Below are positions 2,207-27,860 of a DNA stretch of 32,421 nt, piece by piece. The stretch's first letter is position 1. Each line of letters begins with the position of its first letter. The position numbers and the translations under genes are program-made. The stretch spans positions 9,086 through 41,506 of the forward strand of contig SJPJ01000003.1 of NCBI GenBank assembly GCA_007859835.1, read 5' to 3'. The notes beneath the pieces are model-generated. The model was not told where the DNA came from and searched no databases. It saw only the letters and a list, made by a program, of their open reading frames with translations. The DNA is from Novipirellula herctigrandis. Its GTDB lineage: Bacteria; Planctomycetota; Planctomycetia; Pirellulales; Pirellulaceae.

Positions 2207-2720
2207 ACGTCGTGAACCTGTATATTTGACCAAAGGTTGTAACGGTCGGCTAATTTATCGAAGGCTTGATCCGTTGATATCAAGAGAGTGTCCGATACCA
2301 ATTGACTAGCAAAAACCGCCGCAGCAGCAGCGGATCATAAACCAAAATCATCGGATTTTCGCCGCGACGAGCAGCAAAAGCGTCCAATCGGCAAATTGAA
2401 GGGCTTTCATCGAGGCCCCGTTCAATAGTTCCCTACCACAATCGCGAAGGCCACCCTGTGGACAGACGGCGATGGTCCTCCCGGACCGATTCCCAAATGG
2501 CAAGAACCGCCAAGCAGTCTCGATAGCAACAAGTTGGGGCCATTTTTGCGTAAGGCCATGCCAACAAAAAAATTGCCTACAATACGAAGCTATCTGAAGG
2601 AAAGGAAACTCCGAACATCGACCAGCGCCACGGCCTGCTCGATGAGACGCCATGAACCAACAACGATGCTTCGATTATCAATTCGACAAACAACTCACCA
2701 TTCACTCAGCGGAAGAGCAA
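2207..2720. other. Divergent intergenic region between the SDR gene and the first sulfatase
   Basis: This 514-bp stretch separates two divergent genes and must hold promoters for both. On the minus strand a TTGATA-like box near 2278 precedes an A/T-rich stretch (2253-2258), a weak promoter candidate for the SDR gene; it overlaps the palindrome TTGATATCAA at 2274-2283. On the plus strand a TACAAT at 2578-2583 could be a -10 box, but no matching -35 is visible. A roughly 100-codon open frame on the minus strand (2348-2653) has no family resemblance and overlaps the putative sulfatase promoter, so I do not call it. Confidence 0.4.
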
Positions 2721-7115: not shown

Positions 7116-7145
7116 CGAAATCCGTAAAAAACAACCCAAATATCG

Positions 7146-9185: not shown

Positions 9186-9267
9186 TTTGATGCGATCTCG
9201 CCTGATCATTGTGGTTCGTTTTTCAATACTGATCGAGACAAAAGCTGAATACTGTGAGAGTTCTACC

Positions 9268-10737
9268 ATGAGAAGACCTGCTTTCATCGTCATACAACTG
9301 TTGCTGTCTATTTTCGCGACAGGGATGGTTCAGGCGGAATCACAAAAGCCTAACGTGCTCTTTGTTGCGATCGACGACCTGAACGACTGGGTTGGCTGCT
9401 TTGGTGGCAATCCGCAAGTGAAGACGCCAAACCTCGATAAGCTTGCTGCCGAGGGCGGGTTGGTGATGACCAATGCGTACGCGCCGGCCACGGTCTGCTG
9501 TCCATCGCGATCGGCGTTGTTGACGGGAGTGCATGCTCACAAGACTGGTGTTTACGGCAACAAGAACAATTTGAAGAACGCCCCCAAGGCAAAGGACTTG
9601 GTGACCTTGCCCGAGTATTTCAGTCAGCACGGTTACCACGCGCTGTCGATGGGGAAGATCTTTCACAAACATCCGCTTCCCGGCGACACAGGGAACAAGA
9701 AGTCAGACGCGGGCCAGTGGGCTTTCGACGAGTATCACAAAACTCTTGGCGGCATCGGTCCGGCGAGTAAGAAAAGGCCCGTCAATGGTTTGCCCAATTT
9801 GCCCGGTGAGAAGGTTTCGTACCACTACCACGCGTTCGACTGGGGGCCAACGGCCGAGAACGATGAAACCAAAATGTTGGACTACAGGACTGCAAGTTGG
9901 GCCGCGGAACAATTGAAGACGCGCGACTTCGACGGCAAACCGTTCTTCATGGCGATCGGAATCAGCAAGCCGCACCTGACTTGGTACGTCCCGCAAAAAT
10001 ACTTCGACATGTATCCCTTGGATGAGATCGTGTTGCCAAAGACGTTAGCGACGGATTTGGATGATATCCTCGACCGCAATGGGAAACGAATCTATTCCCC
10101 AAGTGCGTCATGGCTGCGGGCCGAGAAATACGGCAAACACAAGGAAGCCGTGCAAGCGTACTTGGCCACGATCACTTTCGTGGATGACTGCATCGGCGTC
10201 TTGCTGGATGGACTTGCGGGCAGCAAACATGCCGACAACACCATCGTAATGCTGTGGGGCGATCATGGCTGGTTTCTGAGCGAGAAGCAGCGATACGGGA
10301 AGACTCAGCTGTGGCAAGAATCGTGCCGAGTTCCCCTGATGGTCAAGGTTCCCGGTGTTACACCAAAGAACAAACAGTGCATGGGCCTGGTGAACTTAAT
10401 CGACATGTATCCGACGCTGGTTGAGCTTTGCGGTTTACCAGAAAACTCTGTGAACGACGGCCACAGTTTCGCTCCGCTGCTTCGCGATCCCAACATGCAG
10501 TGGAACCATCCGACACTAACCAATGGTTGTTTGCCCGGTTTCTACCGCGTCTACGACGGACGCTATAGCTATATCAGCAATCGTCAACGAGGCGCCGAGG
10601 AACTTTACGACCACCGTGATGACCCCATGGAGTGGACCAACCTGATCGGCAACTCGGAACACGACGGGATCAAGTCGCGTCTGAAGGCATTTGTCCCGAA
10701 AACCGACGAGCCAAAATCACCAGAAAACCCTGATTGA
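9268..10737 (+). CDS. Secreted type I sulfatase, iduronate-2-sulfatase-like
   Basis: A 489-residue exported sulfatase. I take ATG 9268 because it gives a clean signal peptide (LLLSIFATGMVQA) and follows a GAGAG stretch; the frame extends upstream to 9187 but would put 27 extra residues before the signal. The formylglycine motif is CCPSR (C77-R81), metal-binding aspartates are D36-D37 in FVAIDDLND, and the later LWGDHGWFLSEK segment holds further metal ligands. The arrangement resembles iduronate-2-sulfatase and subfamily S1_7, hinting at a 2-O-sulfate, but the true substrate in this fucose-rich setting may be a sulfated fucose. It lies 82 bp after the GH127 gene and 63 bp before the next start. 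Confidence 0.92.
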   Translation: MRRPAFIVIQLLLSIFATGMVQAESQKPNVLFVAIDDLNDWVGCFGGNPQVKTPNLDKLAAEGGLVMTNAYAPATVCCPSRSALLTGVHAHKTGVYGNKNNLKNAPKAKDLVTLPEYFSQHGYHALSMGKIFHKHPLPGDTGNKKSDAGQWAFDEYHKTLGGIGPASKKRPVNGLPNLPGEKVSYHYHAFDWGPTAENDETKMLDYRTASWAAEQLKTRDFDGKPFFMAIGISKPHLTWYVPQKYFDMYPLDEIVLPKTLATDLDDILDRNGKRIYSPSASWLRAEKYGKHKEAVQAYLATITFVDDCIGVLLDGLAGSKHADNTIVMLWGDHGWFLSEKQRYGKTQLWQESCRVPLMVKVPGVTPKNKQCMGLVNLIDMYPTLVELCGLPENSVNDGHSFAPLLRDPNMQWNHPTLTNGCLPGFYRVYDGRYSYISNRQRGAEELYDHRDDPMEWTNLIGNSEHDGIKSRLKAFVPKTDEPKSPENPD

Positions 10738-10800
10738 AAGCGAGCCTGCGTCCCTGCGTTGGGGCAGCGTTTTTTTTCAACAGGTTTAGGAGTATTCAAC

Positions 10801-12816
10801 ATGAGAAACGTGCTGCTGTGTATCGGGATTGCATTGGCGATGGCAACTGATGCGATGACAACCGATGTGATGACAACCGATGTGATGGGAGACGACGACT
10901 GGGTAACGGTCAAGCCGAACGAGTTTGAGGGAGCCATCAACAATCCACTCAAAGGATTCCGTGGCTATCACAGCGACGGGTACGGGCTGCTGCATCGTCA
11001 ATACATCGGTTGGAACAGCATTGAACTCAGTGCCGATGACACCGTGGATCGCATCATCGCTCGCACCAACGAAATCACTCGGCACGGAAACAAGAGTTTT
11101 GGTGAACTGAATATCAAACTGGTTCCACGCGTGTACCTGGACTGGGACGGTACGCTGGGCACGGCGAAGCGTCCCAAGCAGCACTGGCCTGCTGACATGG
11201 CGGAATTCGATTACGACAGCCCCGAGTTCCAACAGCGTCTAAAGCGTCTGATCGCAAAGCTCGGAGAGGCATGGGACAACGATCCGCGCATCTTCGCGAT
11301 CCAGATGGGATTGATCGGCTATTGGGGCGAACATCACACACCGGCGCCGACTAAATCACAGCGACGCCTAATGGTGGACGCGTTCAAAAAGGCGTTCAAG
11401 AACAAGCCGATTCTGGTCAGGCACACCGATGCGGAATTTATGGATACTGGGTTCGGGATCTACTATGACACTTTTGCCAATGTGAGCCGCGAGCCACCAC
11501 ACGGGGACAAACATCAGCTCCCCTGGCAGGCAACGCACGTGTATCCCGACATCTGGAAGCACGCGCCGATCGAGGGCGAAGTCGAATACAACTGGCAAAA
11601 AGAACGCAAAGACGCTGACCCTGAAGGGACCTTTGGGCGGACGCCCGATGAGACGATGACGGTGCCCGCCTATCGCCGATACATGATCGATAAGATCCGT
11701 CGCTATCACGCGACCTATCTCGGTTGGATCTCCAGCTACACGTCCGCCGATGCGACTGTGCTCAAAGGCGCTGGCGAAGTACAAAAGGCATTCGGTTATC
11801 GATTCGTGATCGACTCGCTGAATTACCCTGCGAAGTGCTTTCCCGGTGCGGATCTGTCTCTCAGGATGTCTGTTCGGAATACCGGCAGTGCGCCGTTCTA
11901 CTTGAACTGGCCCGTGGCTGTTGCCCTTCTCGATCCGGTGACAAGAAAACCGGTATGGTCGGCGCCGCTTGACGGAATTGATGTTCGCAAGTGGCTTCCC
12001 GGTGAAGACTGGGACAGCGAAGCCGATGCCTATCGAACTACGGCAAAGCAGCACGATGCGCGGGGACGTACTGCGCTTCCTGTGGAACTGACGCCGGGTG
12101 AGTACATCCTCGCCATCGGGATCTTGGACCGTGAAGGCGGCATGGTACCGAGCGTTCGTTTTGCGATTCAGAACTACATCGCCGGGGGCTGGCATCCGTT
12201 CGGGGTCATCGGTGTCGGCGCGACACCGCGGGACACGGCGTTAAAGAATGTTGCCTTCGATAGCCCCGCTTTCGACCGCACGCTTACTTACCAAGTCCCA
12301 GCGGAACTTCTGGCCGTTCAGCCGCCGCCTGTGCCAAAGGTCACGCCCATGCCTCGTTGGCAGCCCGATCCAAAAGTGGAATTGATCAATCCGCGGCGTT
12401 ATTGGGAACTGGTCAGGCGGTCTGACACCATCGAAAAACGAGTCAGCGAGGACGGCTCGCTCGACGGCCCTGATGCACGAAAAGTGCTCAGCGTGATAGG
12501 CGACTACGGCAGGGGAAGCAATCTCAACTACAGGTTCTTTAACCACGGCAAGCTCGATCCCGGCCATTATTGGTTTTCGTGTCGCGTCAAAGGCACGAAG
12601 GGGCAAACCGTGCGGTTCGATGTCGCCGATGGTTGGCGCGGTGTCATGAAAGGAGTCAACGTCCCCCTGTCATCGGAATGGCGCGAGCATGGGATTGAGT
12701 TTGACGTCAAGGAAGCGTTTGAGAACGAGACACGTCTGCGGTTTAGTCTTCCGACCGATTCGAGCGGCGAGTTCCACCTGACCGAACCTCACCTCAAAAG
12801 AATGGATGGAAAGTGA
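10801..12816 (+). CDS. Secreted DUF4832-family putative glycoside hydrolase with C-terminal carbohydrate-binding-like domain
   Basis: A 671-residue protein. The ATG at 10801 follows TAGGAG at good spacing. Residues 1 to about 18 form a signal peptide, immediately followed by a 15-bp tandem repeat coding for an acidic MTTD linker. Residues about 30-330 look like a TIM barrel: KLVPRVYLDWDG and IGYWGEHHTP, with Glu177 in YWGEHH a plausible catalytic acid. Residues about 330-465 match the beta-sandwich DUF4832 (FVIDSLNYP, RNTGSAPFYLNWPV). The last 130 residues (YWFSCRVKGTKGQ, WREHGIEF) resemble a CBM4/9-type jelly roll. Enzymatic activity has not been established to my knowledge for this family; context points to polysaccharide degradation. 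The downstream small ORF begins 11 bp after the stop. Confidence 0.75.
   Translation: MRNVLLCIGIALAMATDAMTTDVMTTDVMGDDDWVTVKPNEFEGAINNPLKGFRGYHSDGYGLLHRQYIGWNSIELSADDTVDRIIARTNEITRHGNKSFGELNIKLVPRVYLDWDGTLGTAKRPKQHWPADMAEFDYDSPEFQQRLKRLIAKLGEAWDNDPRIFAIQMGLIGYWGEHHTPAPTKSQRRLMVDAFKKAFKNKPILVRHTDAEFMDTGFGIYYDTFANVSREPPHGDKHQLPWQATHVYPDIWKHAPIEGEVEYNWQKERKDADPEGTFGRTPDETMTVPAYRRYMIDKIRRYHATYLGWISSYTSADATVLKGAGEVQKAFGYRFVIDSLNYPAKCFPGADLSLRMSVRNTGSAPFYLNWPVAVALLDPVTRKPVWSAPLDGIDVRKWLPGEDWDSEADAYRTTAKQHDARGRTALPVELTPGEYILAIGILDREGGMVPSVRFAIQNYIAGGWHPFGVIGVGATPRDTALKNVAFDSPAFDRTLTYQVPAELLAVQPPPVPKVTPMPRWQPDPKVELINPRRYWELVRRSDTIEKRVSEDGSLDGPDARKVLSVIGDYGRGSNLNYRFFNHGKLDPGHYWFSCRVKGTKGQTVRFDVADGWRGVMKGVNVPLSSEWREHGIEFDVKEAFENETRLRFSLPTDSSGEFHLTEPHLKRMDGK
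10837..10893 (+). repeat. 15-bp tandem repeat at the signal-peptide junction of the DUF4832 gene
   Basis: Units at 10837-10851, 10852-10866 and 10867-10881, with a partial fourth to 10893. Each encodes Ala/Val-Met-x-Thr-Asp. The repeat lies right after the hydrophobic core of the signal peptide and remains in frame. Confidence 0.88.
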
Positions 12817-12827
12817 GAAGAGATACC

Positions 12828-13112
12828 ATGACGAAGCTTGTGTTACGACTCGCATTGTCGGGGCTATGCCTTACTTCGACACAAGCTCTGGCAGCCAACA
12901 TGGCAGAGGAAACGTTGGGTTCGGTTCGTGGCGATCCGAAAACCCGTACCAAGGAGAAAGGCTTCGCGACGACTCGATTCCATATGGGTGCTCGCGTAGT
13001 TGACGCAACCGCCTTCAGCAATCCAAGCAACCCAGTCCGGCCCCGTGGCGTCCCAATCACTTCGTCGTTCCCGCCTGGTGTTGTTACGGAAACGCCCATC
13101 GTTTTCGAGTGA
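12828..13112 (+). CDS. Small secreted protein of unknown function
   Basis: A 94-residue frame starting at ATG 12828, preceded by GAGAAGAGA and only 11 bp after the DUF4832 stop, which suggests translational coupling. The first 23 residues form a textbook signal peptide (LVLRLALSGLCLTSTQALAA), so export is likely. The mature part is polar, with basic KTRTKEK and proline-rich NPSNPVRPRGVP segments, and has no domain I recognise. It may be a true small secreted protein, or the surviving N-terminus of a degraded enzyme gene whose remainder was lost between 13112 and 13241. I favour a translated gene because of its ribosome site and signal peptide, but with moderate certainty. Confidence 0.5.
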   Translation: MTKLVLRLALSGLCLTSTQALAANMAEETLGSVRGDPKTRTKEKGFATTRFHMGARVVDATAFSNPSNPVRPRGVPITSSFPPGVVTETPIVFE

Positions 13113-13240
13113 AAGCGGAGCAGATTTTTGGACGCGTGTTCGCCATGCACCCTCGGTTTGCATCAACAGGTTGCTCAGCAAAATTGTGTTCCATTACAAG
13201 TACACCCTACTCAACCCCACGGGGAATAGGAACTTATGCG

Positions 13241-14611
13241 ATGAGAGGTTTTCTTTATTTGATGGTCGGACTGTTCTTAGGAGACGTGGCACTGGCTGCG
13301 ACCGGCGTTTTTGATGGAACGGACGCACGTACGGATGCGCTGATGCAACAGGCAGAGCAGTCGATTGACGAGATCCGCAAAGGGCAGTTGTCGTTGGAAC
13401 TGATCGATGCGGAGGGAAAGCCAGTCGACGAATCCGTGCAAATCGAGCTTGTTGCCCATGATTTCGATTTTGGTACAGACCTGTTTGGTTTTCATAAACT
13501 CAGCGACGACAACCCTGCAAAGCTCACCGCGTTGAAAGCCATCGACGCGGTATTCAATACCGTCATCGTCTGTGACTATTGGCGTACAAACCAGTGGCAG
13601 TTTCAGGGAACACTCGACTGGGAATCTCCGGATGCTGGATTTGCGATTGCGGATCGGTTGGGCAAGCGCAGCCGCTACCACGCATTGCTGTTTGGATTTC
13701 CGCGTTGGTTACACCATTTTGAAACCGAAGAAGACCAGTGGCGAGCCATCGAGACCCGCATCCGGCATGTGGCTGAGCGATACGGCGACCGAATCCAAGA
13801 AGTGGATGTCATCAATGAGTTCATCAACTACCAGTACTGGCATCAGAATCCGCATGCCAAATACTTGAGGACAACCAAGTATCCGGATATGGCAAAGCCG
13901 GAAAACGGAGCCCGTGTGTTGGCTTTGGCCCGAAAGCACTTTCCGACGGCAAAGCTGGTCGTTTTGGAAGCCAACCTTTGGAGTGTTTCCAATCCCGTAT
14001 TCCAAGAGATCTTTGAGTATCACAAGGAATTGATTCGCCTTGGCGCTCCCTATGATTACATCGGTTACCAAGCACACTACTATGCCGTTGGCGGAATGCC
14101 ATTCGAACAAGGCACACCGAAGTTTGGGCCGCGAACCTTCATGATGGATGAGATCAATCGCGGCATCGAACAGATGGCTTCGCTTGGAAAACCGCTCGTC
14201 ATCACGGAATTCAATCCGCCGTCTCGAAACAACAAGGTAAACAAACCCAATCAGCCTCGCATCAGCGACGAAGAGATTGCCGCCTGGGAATCCAACTTCT
14301 ACACGCTGATGTTTTCAAAAGCCTACATGAAGGGACTTTCCCGTTGGTTCACGATCGACAATCTTGGCGGACGGGGATTGGATGCGGGAGTGGTCACCGA
14401 AGACGGCAAGCTAAAGCCGAATTACACTGCCCTGAGGCATTTGATCAAGGAGAAGTGGCACACACAATGGAAAGGAAACCTAGTCTCTGGGAAAGCCGCA
14501 TTCGAGGGTTTCTACGGGACGTATCGTGTCCAGGTGGACGGATTCCAGGCAGCTACCGTTGATCTGACAGTCGACAGCCCGAACCAACGCATTCGCTTGA
14601 TGCCTGAATGA
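13241..14611 (+). CDS. Secreted GH10-like endo-beta-1,4-xylanase-family hydrolase
   Basis: A 456-residue exported protein. ATG 13241 follows GGGGAATAGGA and gives a signal peptide (MVGLFLGDVALAA); the upstream in-frame extension to 13109 overlaps the preceding small ORF and is not used. After a roughly 70-residue N-terminal beta-rich segment the GH10 barrel contains both retaining-mechanism glutamates: Glu193 in DVINEF (acid/base) and Glu323 in VITEFN (nucleophile). YHALLFGFPRW and YIGYQAHYY correspond to conserved barrel strands. A short C-terminal beta extension follows (FYGTYRVQV). GH10 enzymes cut beta-1,4-xylan or related chains; here the backbone could be different. Neighbours are fucosidases and sulfatases, so the true substrate is uncertain. 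Confidence 0.85.
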   Translation: MRGFLYLMVGLFLGDVALAATGVFDGTDARTDALMQQAEQSIDEIRKGQLSLELIDAEGKPVDESVQIELVAHDFDFGTDLFGFHKLSDDNPAKLTALKAIDAVFNTVIVCDYWRTNQWQFQGTLDWESPDAGFAIADRLGKRSRYHALLFGFPRWLHHFETEEDQWRAIETRIRHVAERYGDRIQEVDVINEFINYQYWHQNPHAKYLRTTKYPDMAKPENGARVLALARKHFPTAKLVVLEANLWSVSNPVFQEIFEYHKELIRLGAPYDYIGYQAHYYAVGGMPFEQGTPKFGPRTFMMDEINRGIEQMASLGKPLVITEFNPPSRNNKVNKPNQPRISDEEIAAWESNFYTLMFSKAYMKGLSRWFTIDNLGGRGLDAGVVTEDGKLKPNYTALRHLIKEKWHTQWKGNLVSGKAAFEGFYGTYRVQVDGFQAATVDLTVDSPNQRIRLMPE

Positions 14612-14665: not shown

Positions 14666-16180
14666 ATGCGTGGAAGCATTTGTTTTTTATTACTCATGAG
14701 TGTTGGTTTAACAGCCGAATGTGCCGATACTACGCAGCAACCCTTTCAAGCAAATTGGGAATCGTTAGACAAGTACGAAATTCCCGCATGGATGGCGGAC
14801 AGCAAGTTCGGCATCTTCATACACTGGGGACCTTCCTGTGTTCCCGGGCATCATACGGACTGGTATCCGCGTTGGATGTATCAAGACAAGGTGCAACGAC
14901 ATCACAAAACGGGCGAAGTTTTAACAAACAAGGCTCATCCGTCTTACCTTTTTCACGTTAAGACTTTCGGTAACCCTGCCGACTTTGGATACAAGGATTT
15001 GTTCCCGCTGTTCAAGGCCGAACAATTCGACTCCAAGGCTTGGGTGGATCTGTTTGCTAAATCAGGAGCCAAGTACGTTATCCCTGTTGCGGAACATCAT
15101 GACGGTTACGCCATGTACGATTCGTCCGTCACGCGTTGGAATTCTGTTCAAACTGGCCCGAAACGTGATCTGCTGGGCGAACTACGTGACGAGATCAAAA
15201 AGCAAGGACTCATCTTCGGCGTCTCATCCCATTATGCGTTCAACTGGCACTACTACCCGCAGCAGCCTCAATACGATACCGGCGATCCGGCCTATGCTGA
15301 TCTGTACGCTCCGCAACATGAACCACTGAGTCCTGCCAGTGACAAATTCTTGGCGACTTGGTGGCTGCGGACCAAAGAAGTCATCGATCGGTATGAACCA
15401 GACATCCTTTGGTTCGATTTTGGTTTGGACTATGCCGAGTTTGCCCCCTACCACGCAAAGTTAGCCGCCTATTACTACAACCACGGCCGAAACCGCGGAG
15501 TGACAACGGTCCTGCAAAGCAAGAACCTCCAGTACCCTTCGTATCCCAAGGGTACGCACATGCTTGACTTGGAGCGAAGCAAGTCGGATGAAATGCTGGA
15601 CGAACTCTGGCAAACAGATACTTCGGTCGGCAGTAATTCCTGGTTCTACTGTCGCGAATGGATTTCCAAGTCGTCCAACCTGCTGATCGACGATCTCGTT
15701 GACATCGTCAGTAAGAACGGTTGCCTGCTGCTAAACATTGGTCCCGACGCTGATGGTCGTATCCCTAAAGACCAAGCCAAAGTGCTGCTAGAAATTGGCC
15801 AGTGGCTTGATGTCAATGGCGAAGCGATCTACGGCACGCGTCCCTGGAAGGTGTACGGTGAGGGCCCTACCAAGGTCGCCACCGGTCATTTGAGTGAAGA
15901 CAAAAACGAAAAGTTCACTTGCGACGACATTCGCTTTACAAAAAAAGGTGATACGATCTATGCCACCATCTTGCAGGCACCTGAAGGCAAGACACTTATT
16001 GGTTCGCTAAGTGCGTCCACTCACAGTGAGCTAGAAGGCATCCAATTCGTTTCCCTTCTCGGCTCCGATCAAATAATCGATTGGACCATGACGGACCATG
16101 GCCTGCAGATCGGCAATATCCTTGATCCACCGCTGCAGAGCGCAGTGGTGCTGAAGATCGAACTTGCGAAATCCAAGTAG
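14666..16180 (+). CDS. Secreted GH29 alpha-L-fucosidase (copy 1)
   Basis: A 504-residue exported enzyme with a signal peptide ending near TAECA (residues 16-20). All main GH29 markers are present: the FIHWGP motif (His53), EHHDGY (His144-His145), and the nucleophile Asp251 in ILWFDFG. The C-terminal [19 protein letters not shown] block and RPWKVYGEGP are typical of the family, as is the following beta-sandwich. It should release alpha-linked L-fucose from non-reducing ends, outside the cytoplasm. AAAGGTG precedes the ATG at good spacing. It lies 54 bp after the GH10 gene and 42 bp before a sulfatase, which fits alternate desulfation and defucosylation of the same glycan. Most similar here to copy 4. 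Confidence 0.93.
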   Translation: MRGSICFLLLMSVGLTAECADTTQQPFQANWESLDKYEIPAWMADSKFGIFIHWGPSCVPGHHTDWYPRWMYQDKVQRHHKTGEVLTNKAHPSYLFHVKTFGNPADFGYKDLFPLFKAEQFDSKAWVDLFAKSGAKYVIPVAEHHDGYAMYDSSVTRWNSVQTGPKRDLLGELRDEIKKQGLIFGVSSHYAFNWHYYPQQPQYDTGDPAYADLYAPQHEPLSPASDKFLATWWLRTKEVIDRYEPDILWFDFGLDYAEFAPYHAKLAAYYYNHGRNRGVTTVLQSKNLQYPSYPKGTHMLDLERSKSDEMLDELWQTDTSVGSNSWFYCREWISKSSNLLIDDLVDIVSKNGCLLLNIGPDADGRIPKDQAKVLLEIGQWLDVNGEAIYGTRPWKVYGEGPTKVATGHLSEDKNEKFTCDDIRFTKKGDTIYATILQAPEGKTLIGSLSASTHSELEGIQFVSLLGSDQIIDWTMTDHGLQIGNILDPPLQSAVVLKIELAKSK

Positions 16181-16222: not shown

Positions 16223-17791
16223 ATGAGAATTCTTTCAGCGATACTAGCCGTCACCATTTGCTTCAACGCTTGGGCAAAGGAAAAACAACCGAACATTATT
16301 TTCATCATGTCTGATGATCACGCCGCCCACGCGATTGGAGCCTATGGCGGCAGGTTCGCGGATTTGGATTTAACGCCCAATCTTGATCGATTAGCGGCAC
16401 AGGGCATTCGTTTTGAAAACGCTTTCTGTAACAACTCCATTTGCACACCCAGCCGCGCCTCAATCATCACGGGCCAATACCCACAAACCAATGGCGTTCT
16501 CGATTTAGACATCCAGCTTGATCCCCAGAAACAATACCTGCCAAACGAACTACGACGACTTGGGTACAGCACGGCTGTGATTGGAAAATGGCACCTGCAC
16601 ATCGAACCAACAGCCTTTGATTACTACAAGGTGCTTCCGGGACAAGGAAAGTATTTCAATCCTGCCTTCCACGATAAGGGCAAAGGCCAATGGCCAAACA
16701 ACAAAGTGCAAACCCAAGGGCACTCCACGGATGTGATTACGGATCTTTCCATTGAATACATCAAGGGATTGGACAAATCAAAGCCTTTCTTTTTGATGCA
16801 TCACTATAAAGCCCCGCATGACATGTTTGAGTACGCTCCGCGCTATGAGGATTTTTTAGCAAAAACGGAAATCCCCGAACCGGCCAGTTTGTACTATCAA
16901 CCAAATTGGGGATCGGCAGGTACGCGTGGTGAGGATGGGGCGCAAGAGCACTACATCGGCACATCAATCTCCGATCGGCATACCCATCGCAATTACAACG
17001 AGATGCTGCTCGACGGCAAGTTCGAAGGCCCCGAATCAGCGCACCAGGGATATCAAAAGTACCTGAAAGCCTACTTGCGTTGCGTCAAAGGAGTGGATGA
17101 CAACCTAGGACGATTCTTTGATTTCCTCAAATCGGAAGGGCTCTGGGAGAACACGGTCATCCTTTATACCGGCGACCAGGGAATGATGCTGGGCGAGCAC
17201 GACTTGCAAGACAAACGCTGGATGTACGAAGAATCGATGCGAATGCCTTTCATCGTGCACTATCCCAAAATGGTTAAACCGGGAATGGTCACGGATCTTC
17301 TTGTCAACAATACCGACTATGCACCCACGATGATTGAATTGGCTGGCGGCGATACGCCTGAGTACATGCAAGGAAGCAGCTTCATCAAAACACTTCAGGG
17401 AAAAGAAGAAACCGATTGGCGAATAGCCACATATTACCGCTACTGGATGCATATCATCCATCACTACGTTCCAGCGCATTTTGGCATCCGCACCAAGAAT
17501 TACAAATTGCTGTTCTACTACGGCAAGCATTACCTGCCTGAGTCAGAGTTTGAAAAGTATTACTGGGCCAGCCAATATTATGGCATTGAAAAAGAGACGC
17601 CCCATACATGGGAGTTCTACGATCTAAAAAACGATCCACAAGAATTGCACAATCGATACAACGACCCCGCTTACAAAGAGACCATCGCTGAACTCAAGAT
17701 AGAACTGAGAAAGCAGCGCAGCGAGCTTAACGAAACCGATGCCGACTATCCGGCCATCCAAGCCATCGTGGAAAAACACTGGGACGAATAA
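16223..17791 (+). CDS. Secreted type I sulfatase, N-acetylglucosamine-6-sulfatase-like
   Basis: A 522-residue exported sulfatase with a short signal peptide (about residues 1-18). The formylglycine motif is CTPSR (C74-R78), the metal aspartates are D31-D32 in IMSDDHAAHA, and YTGDQGMMLGEH supplies the later metal-binding residues. The RWMYEESMRMPFIVHYP region is of the kind seen in GlcNAc-6-sulfatase-like S1_11 enzymes, so a 6-O-sulfate is possible, but a sulfated fucose or galactose is equally compatible with the neighbouring fucosidases. It follows the first GH29 gene by 42 bp. The next gene starts 238 bp later, the largest gap in the run, where a second promoter could lie. Confidence 0.93.
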   Translation: MRILSAILAVTICFNAWAKEKQPNIIFIMSDDHAAHAIGAYGGRFADLDLTPNLDRLAAQGIRFENAFCNNSICTPSRASIITGQYPQTNGVLDLDIQLDPQKQYLPNELRRLGYSTAVIGKWHLHIEPTAFDYYKVLPGQGKYFNPAFHDKGKGQWPNNKVQTQGHSTDVITDLSIEYIKGLDKSKPFFLMHHYKAPHDMFEYAPRYEDFLAKTEIPEPASLYYQPNWGSAGTRGEDGAQEHYIGTSISDRHTHRNYNEMLLDGKFEGPESAHQGYQKYLKAYLRCVKGVDDNLGRFFDFLKSEGLWENTVILYTGDQGMMLGEHDLQDKRWMYEESMRMPFIVHYPKMVKPGMVTDLLVNNTDYAPTMIELAGGDTPEYMQGSSFIKTLQGKEETDWRIATYYRYWMHIIHHYVPAHFGIRTKNYKLLFYYGKHYLPESEFEKYYWASQYYGIEKETPHTWEFYDLKNDPQELHNRYNDPAYKETIAELKIELRKQRSELNETDADYPAIQAIVEKHWDE

Positions 17792-18029: not shown

Positions 18030-21000
18030 ATGAAGATCCATTCAAGGTTTGGACAGAATTTATTCGCTTGCAGCATGGTAGTAATCTTGCTTGCACAGGG
18101 ACACGCAATCGGTGCGGAACCTGGTCGTTGGACAATGTTGTCAGAGAATCCGGCAAACCACTGGCGAGATGCCTTTGTGACGGGAAACGGTCGGCACGGA
18201 ACGATGGTGATGGGGCATCCTGGGAAGGAAACCGTCATCTGTGTCCACGAAGAACTGTTCGTCTCGGCCTGGGACCGGGATGTCGAGTCCGTGGCCGATA
18301 TTGCCCACTTGCTTCCGGAGGTGCGAAAGCTGATTCGCGATGGAAAACCAGCCGATGCAGCAGAGTTGGCGGTTGAAGCCGTGCGGAAGCAAAATGAACC
18401 CCGAGGCGTTACGAATGACGGATGGCCAGTGGTCCCTCATCCCGCTTTCGATCTGGATATCCAATTCGAAAGTTCTGGCCCGGCGACGGATTACCAACGG
18501 CAACTCAACCTGGAAACCGGAGAGGCCTTTTCGCAGTGGGCGGATACGGCCAAGGGAGTCGAACAAAGAGTGTTTTCATCGCAAACACACAATCTCAACG
18601 TCGTGGAACTGCGTGCCACGGGAGATCAGAAACTAAATTTGGCACTTCGCTTGGCCGAAAGGCCGGGCCGCATCGACAAGAACAAACCGAAGCACCGGAA
18701 CGTTGAGATGAATGGGGCCTTCAACTCCATTACCACGGACGCCGCCCCCGGATGGCTTTTCTACCACGCGGATTATGCGTTGGATCGCGGTGGCTACGAG
18801 GGTGTCGCTCGAGTCACCACCGTTGGGGGAACCACGGTGCAAGACGATGAGACTTTGCAGATCCAAGACGCGGATCGTGTCTTGATCCTGATCCGAATCC
18901 AACCACTGGAAGACGGCAAGGTCTCACAAAAGAAAATGATCCAACAGGAACTCAAAGCGTTGCCCAATGACTATGAGTCACTCCTGAAGCCGCATGCTGA
19001 TAAACACGGAGAGATGTTCCGACGCGTGACGCTGGACCTTGGTTGCGAAAAGCAATGGCGCGAGGAATCGACCGAAAAGCTCCTCGCAGACATCCACACC
19101 AATGGCGTGACGCCTCGTTTCCTGGAAGCCATCCATGCGATGGGCCGCTACCTGCTGATTTCCACCAGCGGAAAGTACCCGGCTCCGCTGCAAGGTATTT
19201 GGGGAGCCGATTGGCGGGCCTCTTGGGGAGGAAGCTTTACGACCAATTCGAATGTGAACTTGGCGATCTCTTCGTTCGGAATGGGAAACCTTCCCGAGAT
19301 CGCCGAGGGTTACTATGGTTACATCGAACGTCAACTGCCGGGTTGGCGTGCGAACGCGAAAAAATACCTAGGGTGTCGCGGCATACTCGCTTCTCTAAAC
19401 ATGGACCCTGAAACGGGTTATGAGACACATTTTCATGCCCAACACCCCGTTCTCTATTGGGTTGGAGGAACGGGGTGGAACATTCGGCCGCTTTATGACT
19501 TTGCTCTGCTTAGCGGCGATGATGCCTTCATGAAGGAAAAGGTCCTACCGCTCTATCTTGAACTCGGGCTCTTCTACGAAGATTACTTGGTCAAGGGAGA
19601 GGACGGGATCTACGACGTCATTCCCAGTCAATCACCAGAGAATGATCCGGGTGGAAAACGTGGCGAGCGGTTAACAGAAAACAGCACCTTCAGTGTGGCA
19701 GTGGCCCGTGAAACCTTTTCGATTCTTTTGGAGCTGGGCAAACAATTTGATCTTCCCGCGGATGACATTGCCAAGTGGAAAGAGATTCACGACCATCTGC
19801 CTGCCTACCGCATCAATCAAGATGGAGCCTTAGCCGAATGGATTCCCGAGCAATACAAGGATAACTATTCGCACCGTCACAACTCCCATCTGTATCCTGT
19901 TTATCCCGGGATGGAATTAGTGGAACCGACAGCGAATCCGGCACTGGATAAGGCCGTGCGAGTAGCCCTGGAAAAGCGATGTAACTTTGATACGACCTCA
20001 GCCCATGGGTTGATGCATGCTGCCTTGATGGCTTCTCGGCTTCGAGATGTGGAAAAGGTCCGCACGAACCTCGACCGGTTTTCCCGGCGTCAGTATCTCT
20101 CAGACAGTTTCGTCACTTCCCACAACCCCAACCACGGCGTCTATAACCTGGATGCGGCCCTAAGTCTGCCGCGTCTTCTGATGGAGATGCTGGTGTTTTC
20201 ACGCCCCAGTTATATTCGATTGATGCCGGGCTGGCCGGAGGAATATGCCGATGGGACGATGACCGGCATATTGGTCCGTGGCGGACACAAGATCGATGTC
20301 ACTTGGGCCGATGGGAAACTGAAATCGGCGGTTCTCTACGCGGGAAAGGATGGTCCCTGCGAGATCCATTATCGCGATGCCAGCCAGACGCTGGAGCTAA
20401 AGGCAGGAGAGATCTATCACATGGATGGATCGCTAGCGACATCGACCGCTTCGGCTCAGAACAACGTGGATGAAACACAGAAAAGCACCGCCGACACATT
20501 GGATCAAGATGCCGAACTTCGTGGCGACATCATTTACTCCACGGGTTTCGATACTGACGACTGGCTCGAGGACTGGGACCATGCAGGTCATCGCGATTCA
20601 ATGAACATCGTTGACCCGAACGAGATCAATGGAATTCCGCCGCTCAAGCTGCACGGCAAATCAACTGGTAACGTGCTGCAGGTGACGATAGCCAAAGATG
20701 GGCATTATGGTTGTGGACCGCAATTCATGTTTGATCGACATTTAGGTTACCGGCCCAAAGAAATGTACGCCCGGTTCGATTGCTGCTTTGCCGAAGACTT
20801 CGTCGGCTATGGTGGCAAGGCGCCCGGTTGGGGCGGGACGGAAAAGTCAGGCTGGGGCGGCAAACCGTCGGACGGCTTTAATGGCTGGTCCGCGCGCGGC
20901 GGAATCCATACGAACCGCGACGGCACACTGGCCATGAGCTACTACACCTATCATGCACTGATGCCAGGCAAGTACGGCGACTCGTTTCGCTGGAGCGGTG

Positions 21001-21296
21001 ATGCTGCGAAAATCGTACCGGGCCGTTGGTACTGTATTGAGCAGTACTGCAAGATCAACTCGCCCGGTGAAAGCGACGGTGTGCTACGTGCGTGGGTCGA
21101 CGGGCGATTGGTGTTGGACAAGACCGACGTGCAGATGCGAAAGACAGATAAATTGGGGCTAAAGTTCTATTGGCTGAACTACTACTTCGGCGGCAAAGGG
21201 GTCTCATCGCAAGCACGGCACGTCTATCTCGATAACATGGCATTCGCCACCGACAACCGTCTGAATGCATTGGGGCAAAGCAAGACGGACAAGTAG
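18030..21296 (+). CDS. Secreted GH95 alpha-L-fucosidase fused to a PL14-like C-terminal domain
   Basis: A 1088-residue protein, much longer than the roughly 750-800 residues of a plain GH95 enzyme. ATG 18030 gives a signal peptide (MVVILLAQGHAIGA). Residues about 35-800 are GH95: a beta domain, then an (alpha/alpha)6 barrel with Asn408 and Asn410 (NVN), Glu537 in a SPEN motif and Asp708, candidates for the Asn/Asn, Glu and Asp residues of Bifidobacterium AfcA. HRHNSHLYPVYPG is also characteristic. After a polar linker (about 800-828), residues about 830-1070 form a beta-rich domain with GKAPGWGG, GWSARGGI and YYTYHA, resembling PL14 / alginate-lyase-like jelly rolls; it may bind or cleave uronate-containing glycan. 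GH95 inverts alpha-1,2-fucosides or alpha-L-galactosides. The whole ORF is uninterrupted. Confidence 0.9.
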   Translation: MKIHSRFGQNLFACSMVVILLAQGHAIGAEPGRWTMLSENPANHWRDAFVTGNGRHGTMVMGHPGKETVICVHEELFVSAWDRDVESVADIAHLLPEVRKLIRDGKPADAAELAVEAVRKQNEPRGVTNDGWPVVPHPAFDLDIQFESSGPATDYQRQLNLETGEAFSQWADTAKGVEQRVFSSQTHNLNVVELRATGDQKLNLALRLAERPGRIDKNKPKHRNVEMNGAFNSITTDAAPGWLFYHADYALDRGGYEGVARVTTVGGTTVQDDETLQIQDADRVLILIRIQPLEDGKVSQKKMIQQELKALPNDYESLLKPHADKHGEMFRRVTLDLGCEKQWREESTEKLLADIHTNGVTPRFLEAIHAMGRYLLISTSGKYPAPLQGIWGADWRASWGGSFTTNSNVNLAISSFGMGNLPEIAEGYYGYIERQLPGWRANAKKYLGCRGILASLNMDPETGYETHFHAQHPVLYWVGGTGWNIRPLYDFALLSGDDAFMKEKVLPLYLELGLFYEDYLVKGEDGIYDVIPSQSPENDPGGKRGERLTENSTFSVAVARETFSILLELGKQFDLPADDIAKWKEIHDHLPAYRINQDGALAEWIPEQYKDNYSHRHNSHLYPVYPGMELVEPTANPALDKAVRVALEKRCNFDTTSAHGLMHAALMASRLRDVEKVRTNLDRFSRRQYLSDSFVTSHNPNHGVYNLDAALSLPRLLMEMLVFSRPSYIRLMPGWPEEYADGTMTGILVRGGHKIDVTWADGKLKSAVLYAGKDGPCEIHYRDASQTLELKAGEIYHMDGSLATSTASAQNNVDETQKSTADTLDQDAELRGDIIYSTGFDTDDWLEDWDHAGHRDSMNIVDPNEINGIPPLKLHGKSTGNVLQVTIAKDGHYGCGPQFMFDRHLGYRPKEMYARFDCCFAEDFVGYGGKAPGWGGTEKSGWGGKPSDGFNGWSARGGIHTNRDGTLAMSYYTYHALMPGKYGDSFRWSGDAAKIVPGRWYCIEQYCKINSPGESDGVLRAWVDGRLVLDKTDVQMRKTDKLGLKFYWLNYYFGGKGVSSQARHVYLDNMAFATDNRLNALGQSKTDK

Positions 21297-23276: not shown

Positions 23277-24755
23277 ATGAAAAAACGAATCTCACTGTTG
23301 CTTTTCAGTCTCTTCGTCGCGACGACGATTCCCACATTAGCCCAGGAAGCGGATGAGACGCCGGATGCGTTCCAACCGAACTGGAAATCGCTGGAAGCTT
23401 ATCAATGCCCCGAGTGGTTCCAGGACGCCAAATTCGGCATTTACGCCCACTGGGGACCCTATGTCGTTCCGGCCCATAAATCGGAGTGGTACTCGCACTA
23501 CATGTACTTCAACTACCGCAAACGCCAAGAAGAAGTGTACGGCCCGTTGAAAGATTTTGGGTACAAAGACTTCATCCCCGATTTTACCGGTGAAAAATTT
23601 GACGCGCAAGAATGGGCCAAGCTCTACAAAAGAGCTGGTGCCAAATTTGCTGGCCCGGTCGCCGAACATGCTGATGGATTCACCATGTGGGACAGCGAAC
23701 TGACCGAATGGGACTCGATGCAAATGGGGCCGAAACGCGACGTGGTCGGCGAATTGGAAAAGGCTGTCCGCGAACAGGGAATGAAGTTCGTCACGACGTT
23801 TCATCACCAATGGCTCTGGGGGTGGTATCCGACCTACGACGAAACGACTGACGCTTCGGATCCGAAATATTCGGGGCTCTACGGACCGAAAGTCGAAAAA
23901 GGCCAATTCACCAATACGGCCGTTCGCGATAAACCCTTCTGCCAACTTTGGCAAGAGAAAGTCGATGAGGTCGTTGAAAAATATCACCCCGACATGATCT
24001 GGTTCGATACCCGAACGAACTTGATCCAAGAGCCATATCGTTTGAAAATGGCAGCCAATTTTTATAACAGCGGGCTGGAAGATAATCGCGATGTCATTTT
24101 GACCTACAAGAACCAGGACATGATGCCGGGCACAGGCACGTTCAATATGGAACGAAGTCGAATGCGCGAGATCAATCCCGACCCTTGGCAAACCGACACG
24201 TCGATCGCCAGTAATTCTTGGGGATACGTCGAAGGGCTAAAATACTATAGCACTCAACGTTTGCTTCAGGATCTGGTCGACATCGTTTCGAAAAACGGCT
24301 GCGTCCTATTAAACATCGCGCCGCGAGCCGACGGCACGATCCCACAAGAGCAGGTCCGTCGACTACATGCGATGGGCGATTGGCTCAACATCAACGGTGA
24401 AGCGATCTACGCGACCCGGCCTTGGAAATCGTTCGGCGAAGGTCCAGCGATCATCCCGGAAGGACACCTGGCTGACTTGCACTTTGAAGGATTCAGTGCC
24501 GAAGACATTCGCTTCACACAATCGAAAGACGGCAAGTCGCTATATGTGATCTGTCTTGACATGCCCGAATCGGGCAAACTGATCGTCAAGTCGCTCGGTT
24601 CCGATGCCGGTCTGCTTGATAAGACGCCGCAAGCGGTTTCGCTGCTTGGCTCCGATGCTGAAATTGAATGGGAAAGCGACGGAGAAGCGATGACCTTCGT
24701 CTTCCCAGAACCATTGCCCTGCGATCATCTTTACGCCTTTAAGATTAAGCTGTAA
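23277..24755 (+). CDS. Secreted GH29 alpha-L-fucosidase (copy 2, altered His-His motif)
   Basis: A 492-residue exported GH29 protein with a signal peptide (residues 1-22, [16 protein letters not shown]). The YAHWGPY motif (His58) and the nucleophile Asp244 in MIWFDTR are conserved, as are the [15 protein letters not shown] block and [10 protein letters not shown]. However the His-His-Asp-Gly motif that contacts fucose in this family reads EHADGF (His131, Ala132), and residues after the nucleophile (TRTN) differ from the FGLD/YGFD of its neighbours. It is therefore probably a catalytically competent hydrolase with changed sugar recognition, perhaps for a sulfated or differently linked fucose. 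Copy 3 starts 88 bp downstream. Confidence 0.9.
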
Positions 24756-24843
24756 TCGTTCCCGATTACGACGCGCCGACATCGGCCATTGCTCTTTTCA
24801 TCGGAAACGCCTCCAACACGATGCAAGAAGATTGGAACGACAC

Positions 24844-26310
24844 GTGAAGACAACACAATCTCATTTTGTCGCTACGGGCATATGCATACTCTTCGTCGGA
24901 TTGATCGGCGGGGCACTTGCCCAAGAACCCCATGCGGCCCAAGGAGAGTCATTCCAGCTTGAACAATTGCAACGGCGGTTCGTTGACGACCGCTTCGGCA
25001 TGTTTATCTGTTACAACATCATGTCCTATGGGGCGAAGTGGGGAGAGGATGGTTATGACTGCTCTGGCTTCAATCCACAAAAGCTTGACTGCAACCAATG
25101 GGCCGATGCAGCAGCGTCCGCCGGCATGCGTTTCGGCCTGCTGACGACCAAGCATCACGAAGGCTTTTGTCTGTGGGATAGCGAATTCACTGACTATGAC
25201 GTCGCAGGATCTCCTTACAACAAAGACATCGTCAGGCAATACGTCGATGCCTTTCGTGCCAAAGCGCTTCGTATCGGTTTTTATTATTCGGTATGGGATA
25301 GCACGCACGGTATCAGCAAAGGCACGATCGGTCCCAAAGAGATCGCCTTTATTAAAGGACAGATCCGCGAGTTGCTTACCAACTATGGCGAGATCGACTA
25401 TTTTGTGATCGACGGTTGGTTCTGGAAAATGGGGCATCACGAAGTTCCATTCACGGAAATTCGTGAGTTCATACGCGAGTTACAACCGGAGTGTCTCGTC
25501 ACCGACCATACGCACCTTCAGGCAGTCTATCACGTCGACATCCCGTACTTCGAAGGACCGTTTGGTGCCTTTCCCGCTGCAGGAAACGCAATGCCCTCTG
25601 CCTTGGGGCACTGCAGCGTCAAGGGGAACGGCTGGTTTTGGGGCCCAGAAACTCCTCAAGGTCTTAAGCCTGGCGAGAACGCTCAGTCGATTGTCACCAA
25701 GCTGAAAACATTAGAGAGTCGTTACTGCAACTTCATGCTCAACTGCATGCCCAATCGCGATGGATTGCTGGACCCACTCTACATTGATTTACTCGCAGAG
25801 ATCGGCACGCTTTGGAAACCCGATCTCGATCGTCCACCACTTCCCGCTCAAAATCCACTGCCGGTATATTCGATTCCAATTGAAAACGTCGCGGCGAGCA
25901 GTGGGGATCCGGAGGCCTTAATCGATGCCTGCCAACATGGCACGGAGCACGTTCATTGGATTTCCGATGGGAACATGCCACAGACGATTACGCTGGATCT
26001 AGGCACTGTCTATAAAGGCGTGGATGCCGTTACCATTGTCCCGAATCACCGATGTAAACCTAGTCCAGAGTCCGCCTTGGAAGAAGGCAATGTCACGAAG
26101 CTCAATGTGTTTGCCGGTGTAGATAAAGCAGCCATGACACTCGTTGCGGCGAGGAGTTACACGCCGGACGCTAAACCCCGGCATGTCACGTTTGTTGCTC
26201 AGCCGACTCGCTACATAAAACTCGAGATTCTGGAGTCTCACGGTTCAAATACGATCATTGCGGAATTAGCGGTCGGAGGATCCAAGCAAAAGCCGCTCGC
26301 ATCACGCTAG
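24844..26310 (+). CDS. Secreted divergent GH29-like protein with C-terminal discoidin-like domain (copy 3)
   Basis: A 488-residue exported protein from a different GH29 branch. The GTG at 24844 is chosen because GGA lies upstream and the product starts directly with a signal peptide ([14 protein letters not shown]); a TTG at 24832 is an alternative. The barrel has KHHEGF (His104-His105) and a candidate nucleophile Asp190 in YFVIDGW. Where related enzymes have His in a FGLFIHFG motif, this one reads FGMFICYN (Cys56). The [19 protein letters not shown] block corresponds to the GH29 barrel end. Residues about 360-480 ([28 protein letters not shown]) look like an F5/8-type-C/discoidin sandwich that could bind sugar. 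Likely an exo-fucosidase-like enzyme with changed specificity or weakened activity. Confidence 0.8.
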
Positions 26311-26369
26311 AAATCTGACGAATCCCACTACCGAAATCGGACACCATTTTTCCGAACGATATTAATGCC

Positions 26370-27860
26370 ATGAGAAGAGTTAGACCTTTATCGATCGTTG
26401 TATGCATTGCAGCCCTTAGCTTATCAAGTCTGAGTGGTTGGGCAGAAGAATTCCGCTATGAACCGAAGTGGGAGTCCATTCGCAGCAAATATGAAGTGCC
26501 CGAATGGTTCATGGACGCCAAGTTCGGCATCTTTTTGCATTGGGGCCCTTATGCCGTACCGGCTTATATGTCGGAAAAGTATGCCCCGGGAATGTACGAT
26601 CCCAAATGGAACAAGGGCGGCATGAATGCATTCAGCCATCACCAAGAGAACTATGGCGATCCTTCGAAATTCGGGTACAAGGACTTTGTCCCTAGGTTCA
26701 AGGCAGAGAAGTTTGATGCCAAACAATGGGCGACGTTATTCAATCAAGCCGGGGCTAGGTACGTGGTACCGGTTGCTGAACACCACGACGGTTTTGCCAT
26801 GTACGCCTCCAAACACACGCGTTGGAATGTGGCCGACATGGGGCCCAAGAAAGACGTGATGCGTCTGCTGGCTGACGCTTGCCGCGCGGAAGGCATGAAG
26901 TTTGGGGCCTCCACCCACTTCGCCCTGAACCGCAGCTACTACAGGACGACCGATCCTAATTGGGACACCTGCGATCCTCAATACGCCGATCTCTACTGGT
27001 TTAATGTTCCCAAAGATTCTAAACCGAGTCCTCTATTCCTGGATCTTTGGTGGAAACGAACAACCGATATCATCGATCAATATCATCCCGATGTACTGTG
27101 GTTCGACTACGGTTTTGATAAACCCGGATGGGAGTCCGTGCACAAGGAAATTTTGGCCTATTACTACAACAAGGGCTTGGAGTGGAACAAGGGCGTGGTC
27201 TTTCAGGATAAAAACATGAAGCACCACAATTTTCCTGAGGACCTCATTGTCTTGGATATCGAGCGAGGACGCATGTCGGATATTTCCAAAAACCCTTGGC
27301 AAACCGATACCTCCGTGGGTGAGATCTCGTGGGGATATATCAAGGACGAGAAATACAAATCATCGGATTATCTTTTGGATGAGTTAATCGACATTGTCAG
27401 TAAGAACGGTTGCTTGTTGCTCAACATTGGACCAAAGGCTGATGGAACGATCCCCGTCGAAGCTGAAGCCATTCTGGTCGACATGGGTGCTTGGCTGAAA
27501 GTGAACGGCGAGGCGATCTACGATACGCGGCCCTGGAAAATCTATGGTGAAGGACCGACCAAAGTCAGTAAGGGACATCACTCGGAAAAGAACAACAAAG
27601 ACTCCGGGCCCAAGGATATTCGTTTTACGACCAAAGGCGACGTGCTATTTGCAACTGCATTGGGATGGCCAAACGATGGCGTGTTCACCATTGAGACATT
27701 GGCAAGCGACAATCCTCACGAAAGTCGTGCAGTGAAATCTGTAGCATTGATCAGTGGCTCGAATCCCATCACTTGGGAACAAACACAGCAGGGACTGACC
27801 ATCAAGGTCCAGGGACAAAAACCTTGTGAGGCAGCCTATGCTTTCCGGATCACTTTTTAA
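26370..27860 (+). CDS. Secreted GH29 alpha-L-fucosidase (copy 4)
   Basis: A 496-residue exported GH29 enzyme with a signal peptide (residues about 1-25, VCIAALSLSSLSGWA). The FLHWGPY motif (His57), EHHDGF (His138-His139) and the nucleophile Asp246 in VLWFDYG are all intact, as are [19 protein letters not shown] and RPWKIYGEGP. It is closest in this window to copy 1, sharing SKFGIF/AKFGIF, FGYKD, FKAEKFD and the C-terminal beta domain. It should remove terminal alpha-L-fucose. Last gene of the co-oriented run; a hairpin 22 bp after its stop may end the transcript. It lies 59 bp after copy 3. Confidence 0.93.
   Translation: MRRVRPLSIVVCIAALSLSSLSGWAEEFRYEPKWESIRSKYEVPEWFMDAKFGIFLHWGPYAVPAYMSEKYAPGMYDPKWNKGGMNAFSHHQENYGDPSKFGYKDFVPRFKAEKFDAKQWATLFNQAGARYVVPVAEHHDGFAMYASKHTRWNVADMGPKKDVMRLLADACRAEGMKFGASTHFALNRSYYRTTDPNWDTCDPQYADLYWFNVPKDSKPSPLFLDLWWKRTTDIIDQYHPDVLWFDYGFDKPGWESVHKEILAYYYNKGLEWNKGVVFQDKNMKHHNFPEDLIVLDIERGRMSDISKNPWQTDTSVGEISWGYIKDEKYKSSDYLLDELIDIVSKNGCLLLNIGPKADGTIPVEAEAILVDMGAWLKVNGEAIYDTRPWKIYGEGPTKVSKGHHSEKNNKDSGPKDIRFTTKGDVLFATALGWPNDGVFTIETLASDNPHESRAVKSVALISGSNPITWEQTQQGLTIKVQGQKPCEAAYAFRITF

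What the first reader, a model, noticed from the sequence alone, without database searches (positions are those of the whole stretch)
18030..21296. GH95 fucosidase fused to a PL14-like C-terminal domain
Seen: an uninterrupted 1088-residue frame in which a complete GH95 part (to about residue 800) is followed by a polar linker and a roughly 240-residue beta-rich domain with GKAPGWGG, GWSARGG and YYTYHA segments. These resemble PL14 / alginate-lyase-like jelly rolls as I recall them. If catalytic, one protein would defucosylate and cut uronic-acid linkages; if not, it is a novel binding module for a fucosidase. I know no characterised enzyme with this architecture.
Basis: partly seen in the sequence, partly recalled or inferred. 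Interest (0 to 1): 0.72.

Follow-up and report, generated by a model that had tools for sequence, protein, structure and literature searches.

The report
Fucosidase fused to uronic-acid lyase domain
A bacterium has joined, in one probably secreted protein, an enzyme that should clip fucose off a polysaccharide and a second domain that looks able to cut the acidic sugar chain underneath; the pairing turned up in no other genome searched, but relatives of the lyase are joined to other enzymes that strip decorations.

Summary
Confirmed. ORF 18030-21296 (+) is one 1088-aa frame: GH95 (to residue ~802), a 28-residue polar linker, and a PL14-superfamily domain (831-1079). Pfam PL14 scores 43.6 bits (cut-off 27). 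A model (pLDDT 89.8) matches Aly36B (PL36), AkAly30 and vAL-1 (PL14) and glucuronan lyase, ahead of everything else. Columns K930, S954, R956, Y972, Y974 line up with the known lyases (S is Thr in Aly36B); S/R/Y/Y occur in 97 of 97 rows (window included) and K in 94. The closest GH95 found (55%) ends within four residues of the fusion point, and the nearest lyase relatives (68-69%) are free-standing genes: two enzymes were probably joined. Only this genome has the fusion at the thresholds used, but a congener joins the same lyase clade to a GH29 fucosidase, and more distant ones are joined to a sulfatase or glucuronoyl esterase. Best reading: a bifunctional fucosidase/uronate lyase on a fucosylated, probably sulfated, uronic-acid polysaccharide. 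Fold and active-site columns are computed; activity and substrate are inferred. It is a new architecture of known CAZyme modules (PL14+GH9 and others are published). A binding module is the less likely alternative.

The parts
18030..21296 (+). 1088-aa fusion gene: GH95 + linker + PL14-superfamily lyase-type domain
18030..18116 (+). probable signal peptide (residues 1-29)
   Evidence: by eye from the translation; no signal-peptide predictor was run
18141..20390 (+). GH95: PF14498 N-domain (38-290), PF22124 catalytic (315-721), PF21307 C-domain (724-787)
   Evidence: solved GH95 relatives 8zbv, 2rdy, 7kmq, 4ufc
19638..19640 (+). E537, aligned with the Glu of SPEN/SPEQ in solved GH95s (general acid; role recalled)
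20151..20153 (+). D708, aligned with the Asp of QIDG in solved GH95s (role recalled)
20436..20519 (+). linker ATSTASAQNNVDETQKSTADTLDQDAEL (803-830), begins about where the G047 GH95 ends
20520..21266 (+). PL14-superfamily beta-jelly-roll domain (831-1079)
20817..20819 (+). K930 (K106 of the domain), column of Aly36B K143
20889..20897 (+). S954 and R956 (S-x-R motif; T-x-R in Aly36B)
20943..20954 (+). Y972, Y974, H975 (Y-x-Y-H motif); Y972 is the column of Aly36B Y185
16223..17791 (+). sulfatase immediately upstream
14666..16180 (+). GH29 alpha-L-fucosidase
23277..27860 (+). three GH29-type genes (23277-24755, 24832-26310, 26370-27860)
2652..14611 (+). sulfatases (2652-4382, 9187-10737), two GH127 (5040-7115, 7146-9185), DUF4832 protein (10759-12816), GH10-like protein (13109-14611)

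Best explanation
The gene encodes a probably secreted two-enzyme protein. The GH95 half removes terminal alpha-L-fucose (or alpha-L-galactose) from a branched polysaccharide; the C-terminal PL14-superfamily half then cuts the exposed uronic-acid chain by beta-elimination, with K930 and Y972/Y974 as base and acid and S954/R956/H975 helping to hold or neutralise the carboxylate. The tether puts the decoration remover next to the chain cutter. Shown by computation: one frame, two full-length modules, lyase fold, conserved active-site columns. Inferred: that two free-standing proteins were joined (the simplest reading of the relatives), lyase activity, the roles of single residues, and the substrate, most likely a fucosylated and sulfated uronate polysaccharide such as a fucoglucuronomannan-type fucoidan.
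For: PF21294 over cut-off. Model pLDDT 89.8; the Foldseek top 8 are Aly36B (3.3e-17), AkAly30 5gmt, vAL-1 3gne/3a0n and glucuronan lyase 2zzj (2.0e-11), then a gap to 3.7e-7. Profile matches 6kcw 5.9e-26, 5gmt 5.1e-25, 3a0n 8.9e-10: K, R, Y and Y agree in all three, S in 5gmt and 3a0n (Thr in 6kcw). Conservation: S, R, Y, Y in 97 of 97 rows, K in 94 of 97; four of these five sit among the 26 of 264 invariant columns. Related domains are joined to decoration removers: GH29 in a congener, a CE15-type esterase in 11 of 96 rows, a sulfatase in a more distant PL14 protein. GH95 E537 and D708 kept. Cluster with four GH29-type genes and three sulfatases. All four members of the window's lyase clade have a sulfatase gene nearby.
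Against: No assay. Identity to characterised lyases is 16-22% in the fold alignments. The fused architecture was seen in one genome. The own genome has a GH88 match but no KduI match, so the fate of an unsaturated product is only partly visible. Fusions to a FAD oxidoreductase, a beta-lactamase-like protein and a DUF5060 protein do not fit the decoration-remover pattern. Two relatives have T or M in place of K (L073, L090), and a PL14 protein well over the Pfam cut-off (L203) has N-x-R and no Y-x-Y, so some members may be inactive or work differently. M171 of Aly36B is not kept (Gly here).
Confidence: 0.62

Rival explanations
1. The C-terminal domain is an active lyase, but for ordinary alginate or glucuronan. 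The tether only keeps a fucosidase and an alginate/glucuronan lyase together on a mixed brown-algal wall, as in published GH5+PL31 or PL14+GH9 enzymes; the two halves do not act on one molecule.
For: The characterised lyases among the eight best fold matches cut alginate or glucuronan. PL14+GH9 and other GH+PL enzymes have separate activities on wall components. In the wider domain family 33 of 96 rows carry an N-terminal Disaggr_repeat/CBM96-like domain (similarity to two examples; Pfam on some; that CBM96 binds alginate is recalled).
Against: The window domain lies in a separate four-member clade (SH-aLRT 99) whose neighbours include sulfatases, and in two of the four cases fucosidases. PF21294 marks only this gene in the own genome; one further weak relative of the domain there lacks the motifs. 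Other alginate lyase families were not searched.
Confidence: 0.22
2. The domain is a non-catalytic binding module descended from a lyase; it anchors the GH95 to an acidic polysaccharide.
For: The family is fused to several unrelated enzymes, as binding modules are. Another GH95 (L167) carries a C-terminal Laminin_G_3 domain instead. Eight more distant relatives lack at least one of the GGK/S-x-R/Y-x-Y motifs.
Against: All five active-site residues are kept here and in nearly all of the 97 rows; the nearest relatives (G013, G102) and 37 of 96 rows stand alone, which suits an enzyme better than a binding module.
Confidence: 0.13
3. The fusion is an assembly or frameshift artefact.
For: It was seen in only one genome.
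Against: Single open frame with a polar linker, similar G+C in both halves (0.54 and 0.55), inside a contig of 73,770 bases.
Confidence: 0.03

Closest known systems
PL36 alginate lyase Aly36B (PDB 6kcw, 6kcv, 6kzk)
   Same: Best sequence and fold match; K143 and Y185 columns kept as K930 and Y972
   Different: About 22% identity; S is Thr and M171 is Gly here; the solved chains are about 241-244 residues long with no fucosidase part
PL14 lyases AkAly30 (5gmt) and chlorovirus vAL-1 (3a0n, 3gne)
   Same: Jelly roll, GGK, S-x-R and Y-x-Y columns; Pfam PL14 model over cut-off
   Different: 17-18% identity in the fold alignments; found by sequence only with a profile, not with the single sequence
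PL14+GH9, GH5+PL31, PL7+GH16(+PL6) multimodular enzymes (PMC13235733, passages and section 20 read)
   Same: A GH and an alginate-lyase-type PL in one protein; representatives assayed and active on alginate and glucans
   Different: GH partners there act on glucans; that survey of 13 PL families lists no GH95 or GH29 partner
PL14-like + GH29 fusion in a congener (L023:6761-9121, genome G002)
   Same: Same lyase clade (SH-aLRT 99), also joined to an alpha-L-fucosidase-type domain, beside another GH29 and a sulfatase
   Different: Lyase is N-terminal and the partner is GH29, so probably a separate joining; H975 is Glu there
Fucoidan lyase FdlA of Flavobacterium sp. SA-0082 (PMC9410043, passages read)
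   Same: Shows that a lyase can cut Man-GlcA in sulfated fucoglucuronomannan
   Different: Beta-helix fold, not a jelly roll

Membership tests
GH95 | N-terminal, catalytic and C-terminal GH95 modules | tested here: met
   PF14498, PF22124, PF21307 all over cut-off
GH95 | Conserved catalytic Glu and Asp | tested here: met
   E537 and D708 align with 8zbv, 2rdy and 7kmq; roles recalled. Of an N-x-N pair (N406, N408 here) the first is Asp in the G047 relative
GH95 | alpha-L-fucosidase/galactosidase activity | not testable with these tools
   needs assay
PL14 | Curated PL14 sequence model | tested here: met
   PF21294 43.6 bits, cut-off 27
PL14 | Jelly-roll fold shared with PL14 structures | tested here: met
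   5gmt ranks 4-5 and vAL-1 ranks 6-7, behind the PL36 entries
PL14 | Active-site K, S-x-R, Y-x-Y (residue roles in vAL-1 recalled) | tested here: met
PL14 | CAZy assignment by similarity to a characterised PL14 | tested here: inconclusive
   single-sequence search finds only PL36 chains; CAZy itself was not available
PL14 | beta-elimination activity | not testable with these tools
   needs assay
PL36 | Similarity to Aly36B with K143 and Y185 kept | tested here: met
   6kzk 1.4e-8, Foldseek rank 1; only about 22% identity, so family membership stays open
PL20 | Glucuronan lyase as the closest fold (family number recalled) | tested here: not met
   2zzj only rank 8
PL7 / PL13 | Fold match | tested here: not met
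   none among the 50 rows shown

The most novel reading that the evidence does not exclude
A bifunctional alpha-L-fucosidase/uronate lyase whose two active sites work in turn on the same sulfated fucose-containing uronan. It would give a jelly-roll lyase subfamily for fucoidan-type glycans, and one case of a wider rule in which lyases of this superfamily are repeatedly fused to enzymes that strip decorations (GH95, GH29, sulfatase, glucuronoyl esterase).
Probability: 0.33. Interest if true: 0.7.

Novelty: new variant of a known kind. Interest (0 to 1): 0.52.

Why it matters
Fucoidans are slowly degraded and the enzymes that do it are poorly understood (abstract of PMC12786026 as listed). A lyase-type domain physically tied to a fucosidase, with relatives tied to another fucosidase family, a sulfatase and a glucuronoyl esterase, points to substrates of a large family for which I saw no characterised member, and gives constructs that can be tested directly.

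Tried and rejected
Single-sequence AlphaFold of the domain failed (pLDDT 32.7) and was replaced by a 91-sequence alignment. NCBIfam gave nothing for the fusion protein or the isolated domain. A second structural aligner was not available. PL7 and PL13 were not supported as fold matches. The idea that the lyase domain moved between two orthologous fucosidases was rejected: the GH29 part in the congener is only 35% identical to the nearest window GH29. The alignment to 5gmt misplaces S-x-R; a wider profile lines it up. Gene labels in the neighbourhood counts rest on similarity to window proteins, with Pfam run on ten genes of two loci only. The labels CE15 and DNRLRE rest on similarity to a few examples; Pfam was run on two CE15-type proteins and seven of the other kind, of which one scored under the Disaggr_repeat cut-off (L120).

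Limits of the conservation count: 117 stretches scored at least 150 bits; 20 identical repeats and 1 with unknown residues were dropped, leaving 96 plus the window. One of the two scan patterns contains GWS[AC]R, so S and R are partly selected; K and the two Y are in neither pattern. Rows under 150 bits were dropped: 14 distinct, of which 5 keep all three motifs, 8 lack at least one (by text pattern anywhere in the protein) and 1 is a 113-aa fragment. The tree is a quick one with SH-aLRT only, 96 rows, one fragment left out. The sulfatase comparison (4 of 4 against 19 of 73) is not matched for distance or contig length, and two of the four are near-copies.

Full report
Observation. The frame 18030-21296 on the + strand gives 1088 residues without a stop. 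Pfam places the three GH95 modules within residues 38-787 and Polysacc_lyase_14 (PF21294) at 882-1058, 43.6 bits against a cut-off of 27; a second lyase model, PF14099, scores under its cut-off. The gene lies among co-directed genes for three sulfatases, two GH127, four GH29-type proteins, a GH10-like, a DUF4832 and a DUF4139 protein; a GH2 gene follows on the other strand. It is the only PF21294 match in its own 9.5-Mb genome.

Two enzymes joined. The closest GH95 found, in G047 of another family of the same order, is 55% identical over residues 26-807. It ends KAGETYVLDGQLQLQK, four residues past the point where the window protein reads KAGEIYHMDGSLATST and runs on into the linker. The nearest lyase relatives (68-69%), in G013 and G102, are free-standing genes; that of G013 begins with what looks by eye like a signal peptide, while the start of the G102 frame is uncertain. 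The simplest reading is a full-length GH95, a 28-residue linker and a full-length lyase-type protein. The linker begins ATSTASAQ, which looks like the tail of a signal peptide; that is inference.

Fold. A model from 91 aligned sequences has pLDDT 89.8 and pTM 0.89. The first eight PDB rows are Aly36B (three entries; PL36), AkAly30 (two chains; PL14), vAL-1 (two entries; PL14) and Trichoderma glucuronan lyase (PL20, recalled), E from 3.3e-17 to 2.0e-11; the next row is a sialidase binding domain at 3.7e-7 (PL36 and PL14 labels). By sequence alone the single domain finds only Aly36B chains; a 20-row profile finds Aly36B 5.9e-26, AkAly30 5.1e-25 and vAL-1 8.9e-10.

Active site. The wild-type chain and the mutants K143A and Y185A of Aly36B (named) show which columns are K143 and Y185; they align with K930 and Y972 of the window protein. 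The title of the Aly36B paper, seen in a reference list only, names lysine as catalytic base and acid. In vAL-1 I recall K197, S219, R221, Y233 and Y235 as important; that paper is not held, but the GGK, S-x-R and Y-x-Y columns of 3a0n and 5gmt align here; Aly36B has T-x-R. Across 97 domain sequences (the window and 96 relatives of at least 150 bits) S, R, Y and Y are present in 97 and K in 94; the three others are T, M and a fragment's gap. Four of the five belong to the 26 invariant columns of 264. All five are kept in the 20 rows of A3, which include four more distant PL14 proteins. Of 14 distinct relatives under 150 bits, 5 keep all three motifs and 8 do not, so the wider group also holds motif-less members, and the window domain is not one of them. 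H975 is His in 96 of 97; the exception, Glu, is the GH29 fusion.

How rare. With the domain as query 28 of 241 family genomes match at 1e-20 and 10 of 392 phylum genomes. With the whole protein 10 of 396 order genomes match at 1e-120, and only the own genome covers both halves. With PF21294, 66 of 240 family genomes match, 51 over the cut-off, and the window's frame is the longest among over-cut-off matches. These sets overlap and are samples. A scan of genome contigs with two patterns found 169 relatives, of which the best 80 were kept. None of the 96 proteins kept from all sources is joined to GH95, though some frames are cut by contig ends.

What the lyase is joined to. Of those 96, 37 stand alone, 33 have an N-terminal Disaggr_repeat/CBM96-like domain, 11 a CE15-type glucuronoyl esterase, 3 a FAD oxidoreductase, 2 a beta-lactamase-like protein, 1 GH29, 1 DUF5060 and 8 something else (Pfam on examples). 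The 11 and the 33 each form one side of a branch. In searches with PF21294 a more distant PL14 protein of G237 has an N-terminal sulfatase and keeps GK, S-x-R and Y-x-Y. Three others have a C-terminal beta-helix; the one I read, L203, has N-x-R and no Y-x-Y. Fucosidase, sulfatase and glucuronoyl esterase all strip decorations. The FAD, beta-lactamase-like and DUF5060 partners do not fit this.

The clade. The window domain, the two free-standing genes and the GH29 fusion of a congener form one clade (SH-aLRT 99). Since the lyase is C-terminal on GH95 and N-terminal on GH29, two separate joinings to fucosidases are the simplest reading. All four loci have sulfatase genes close by; in the wider family 19 of 73 loci of at least 5 kb do, and 2 of 73 have a GH29. 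The two free-standing loci are near-copies without a fucosidase hit in the stretches read, so this is about three independent cases.

Mechanism. The GH95 part keeps the Glu and Asp that align across solved GH95s. The most likely action is removal of fucose followed by beta-elimination of the exposed uronate chain. A precedent for the second step on a fucosylated uronan is FdlA, which cuts between mannose and glucuronic acid of sulfated fucoglucuronomannan with a different fold (PMC9410043, passages). A GH88 match in the own genome could take up unsaturated products; KduI was not found. Substrate and activity are inferred.

Known or new. A CAZy survey of 13 lyase families with added GH domains lists GH5+PL31, PL14+GH9, PL7+GH16+PL6 and PL7+GH16 only (PMC13235733, passages and section 20 read). 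My search for GH95 with PL14 listed 10 papers, of which I read passages of one (PMC4807772). Searches for fucosidase with lyase fusion or lyase domain and on neighbouring terms showed no GH95+PL14 enzyme in what I saw, which was mostly listings; passages were also read in PMC8618178, PMC8145301 and PMC11131199. Subscription papers are mostly not held. The modules are known kinds; the combination is new as far as seen here.

Noticed in passing
L049:8552-10762, L078:7016-9022 and nine more loci (L042, L043, L046, L050, L054, L058, L060, L064, L067): A group of Planctomycetota proteins joins a CE15-type glucuronoyl esterase to the same PL14-like lyase domain; a paper search for the pair gave two papers, seen as listings only.
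   Followed up: partly
L208:1-2028 (genome G237): A sulfatase joined to a PL14 domain that keeps the K, S-x-R and Y-x-Y residues.
   Followed up: partly
L198, L202, L203: PL14 domains joined to a C-terminal beta-helix domain; L203 has N-x-R and no Y-x-Y.
   Followed up: partly
L038 (contig downstream of the window), and window 32382-32410: Small ORFs separated by repeats of 36-300 bases, many ending in CGTTATC-like sequence, resembling an integron cassette array; the window's last bases hold an inverted repeat GTTATCACACG...CGTGTGATAAC.
   Followed up: no
window 31653-31715: About three tandem copies of a 21-base unit beginning CACTGTGCTGTCACCC.
   Followed up: no
L167:526-3918 (genome G026): A GH95 with a C-terminal Laminin_G_3 domain.
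   Followed up: yes
G000:C1:2088893-2107047: A GH95-like match and the genome's only GH88 match lie about 15 kb apart, the latter in a 1219-aa frame.
   Followed up: no
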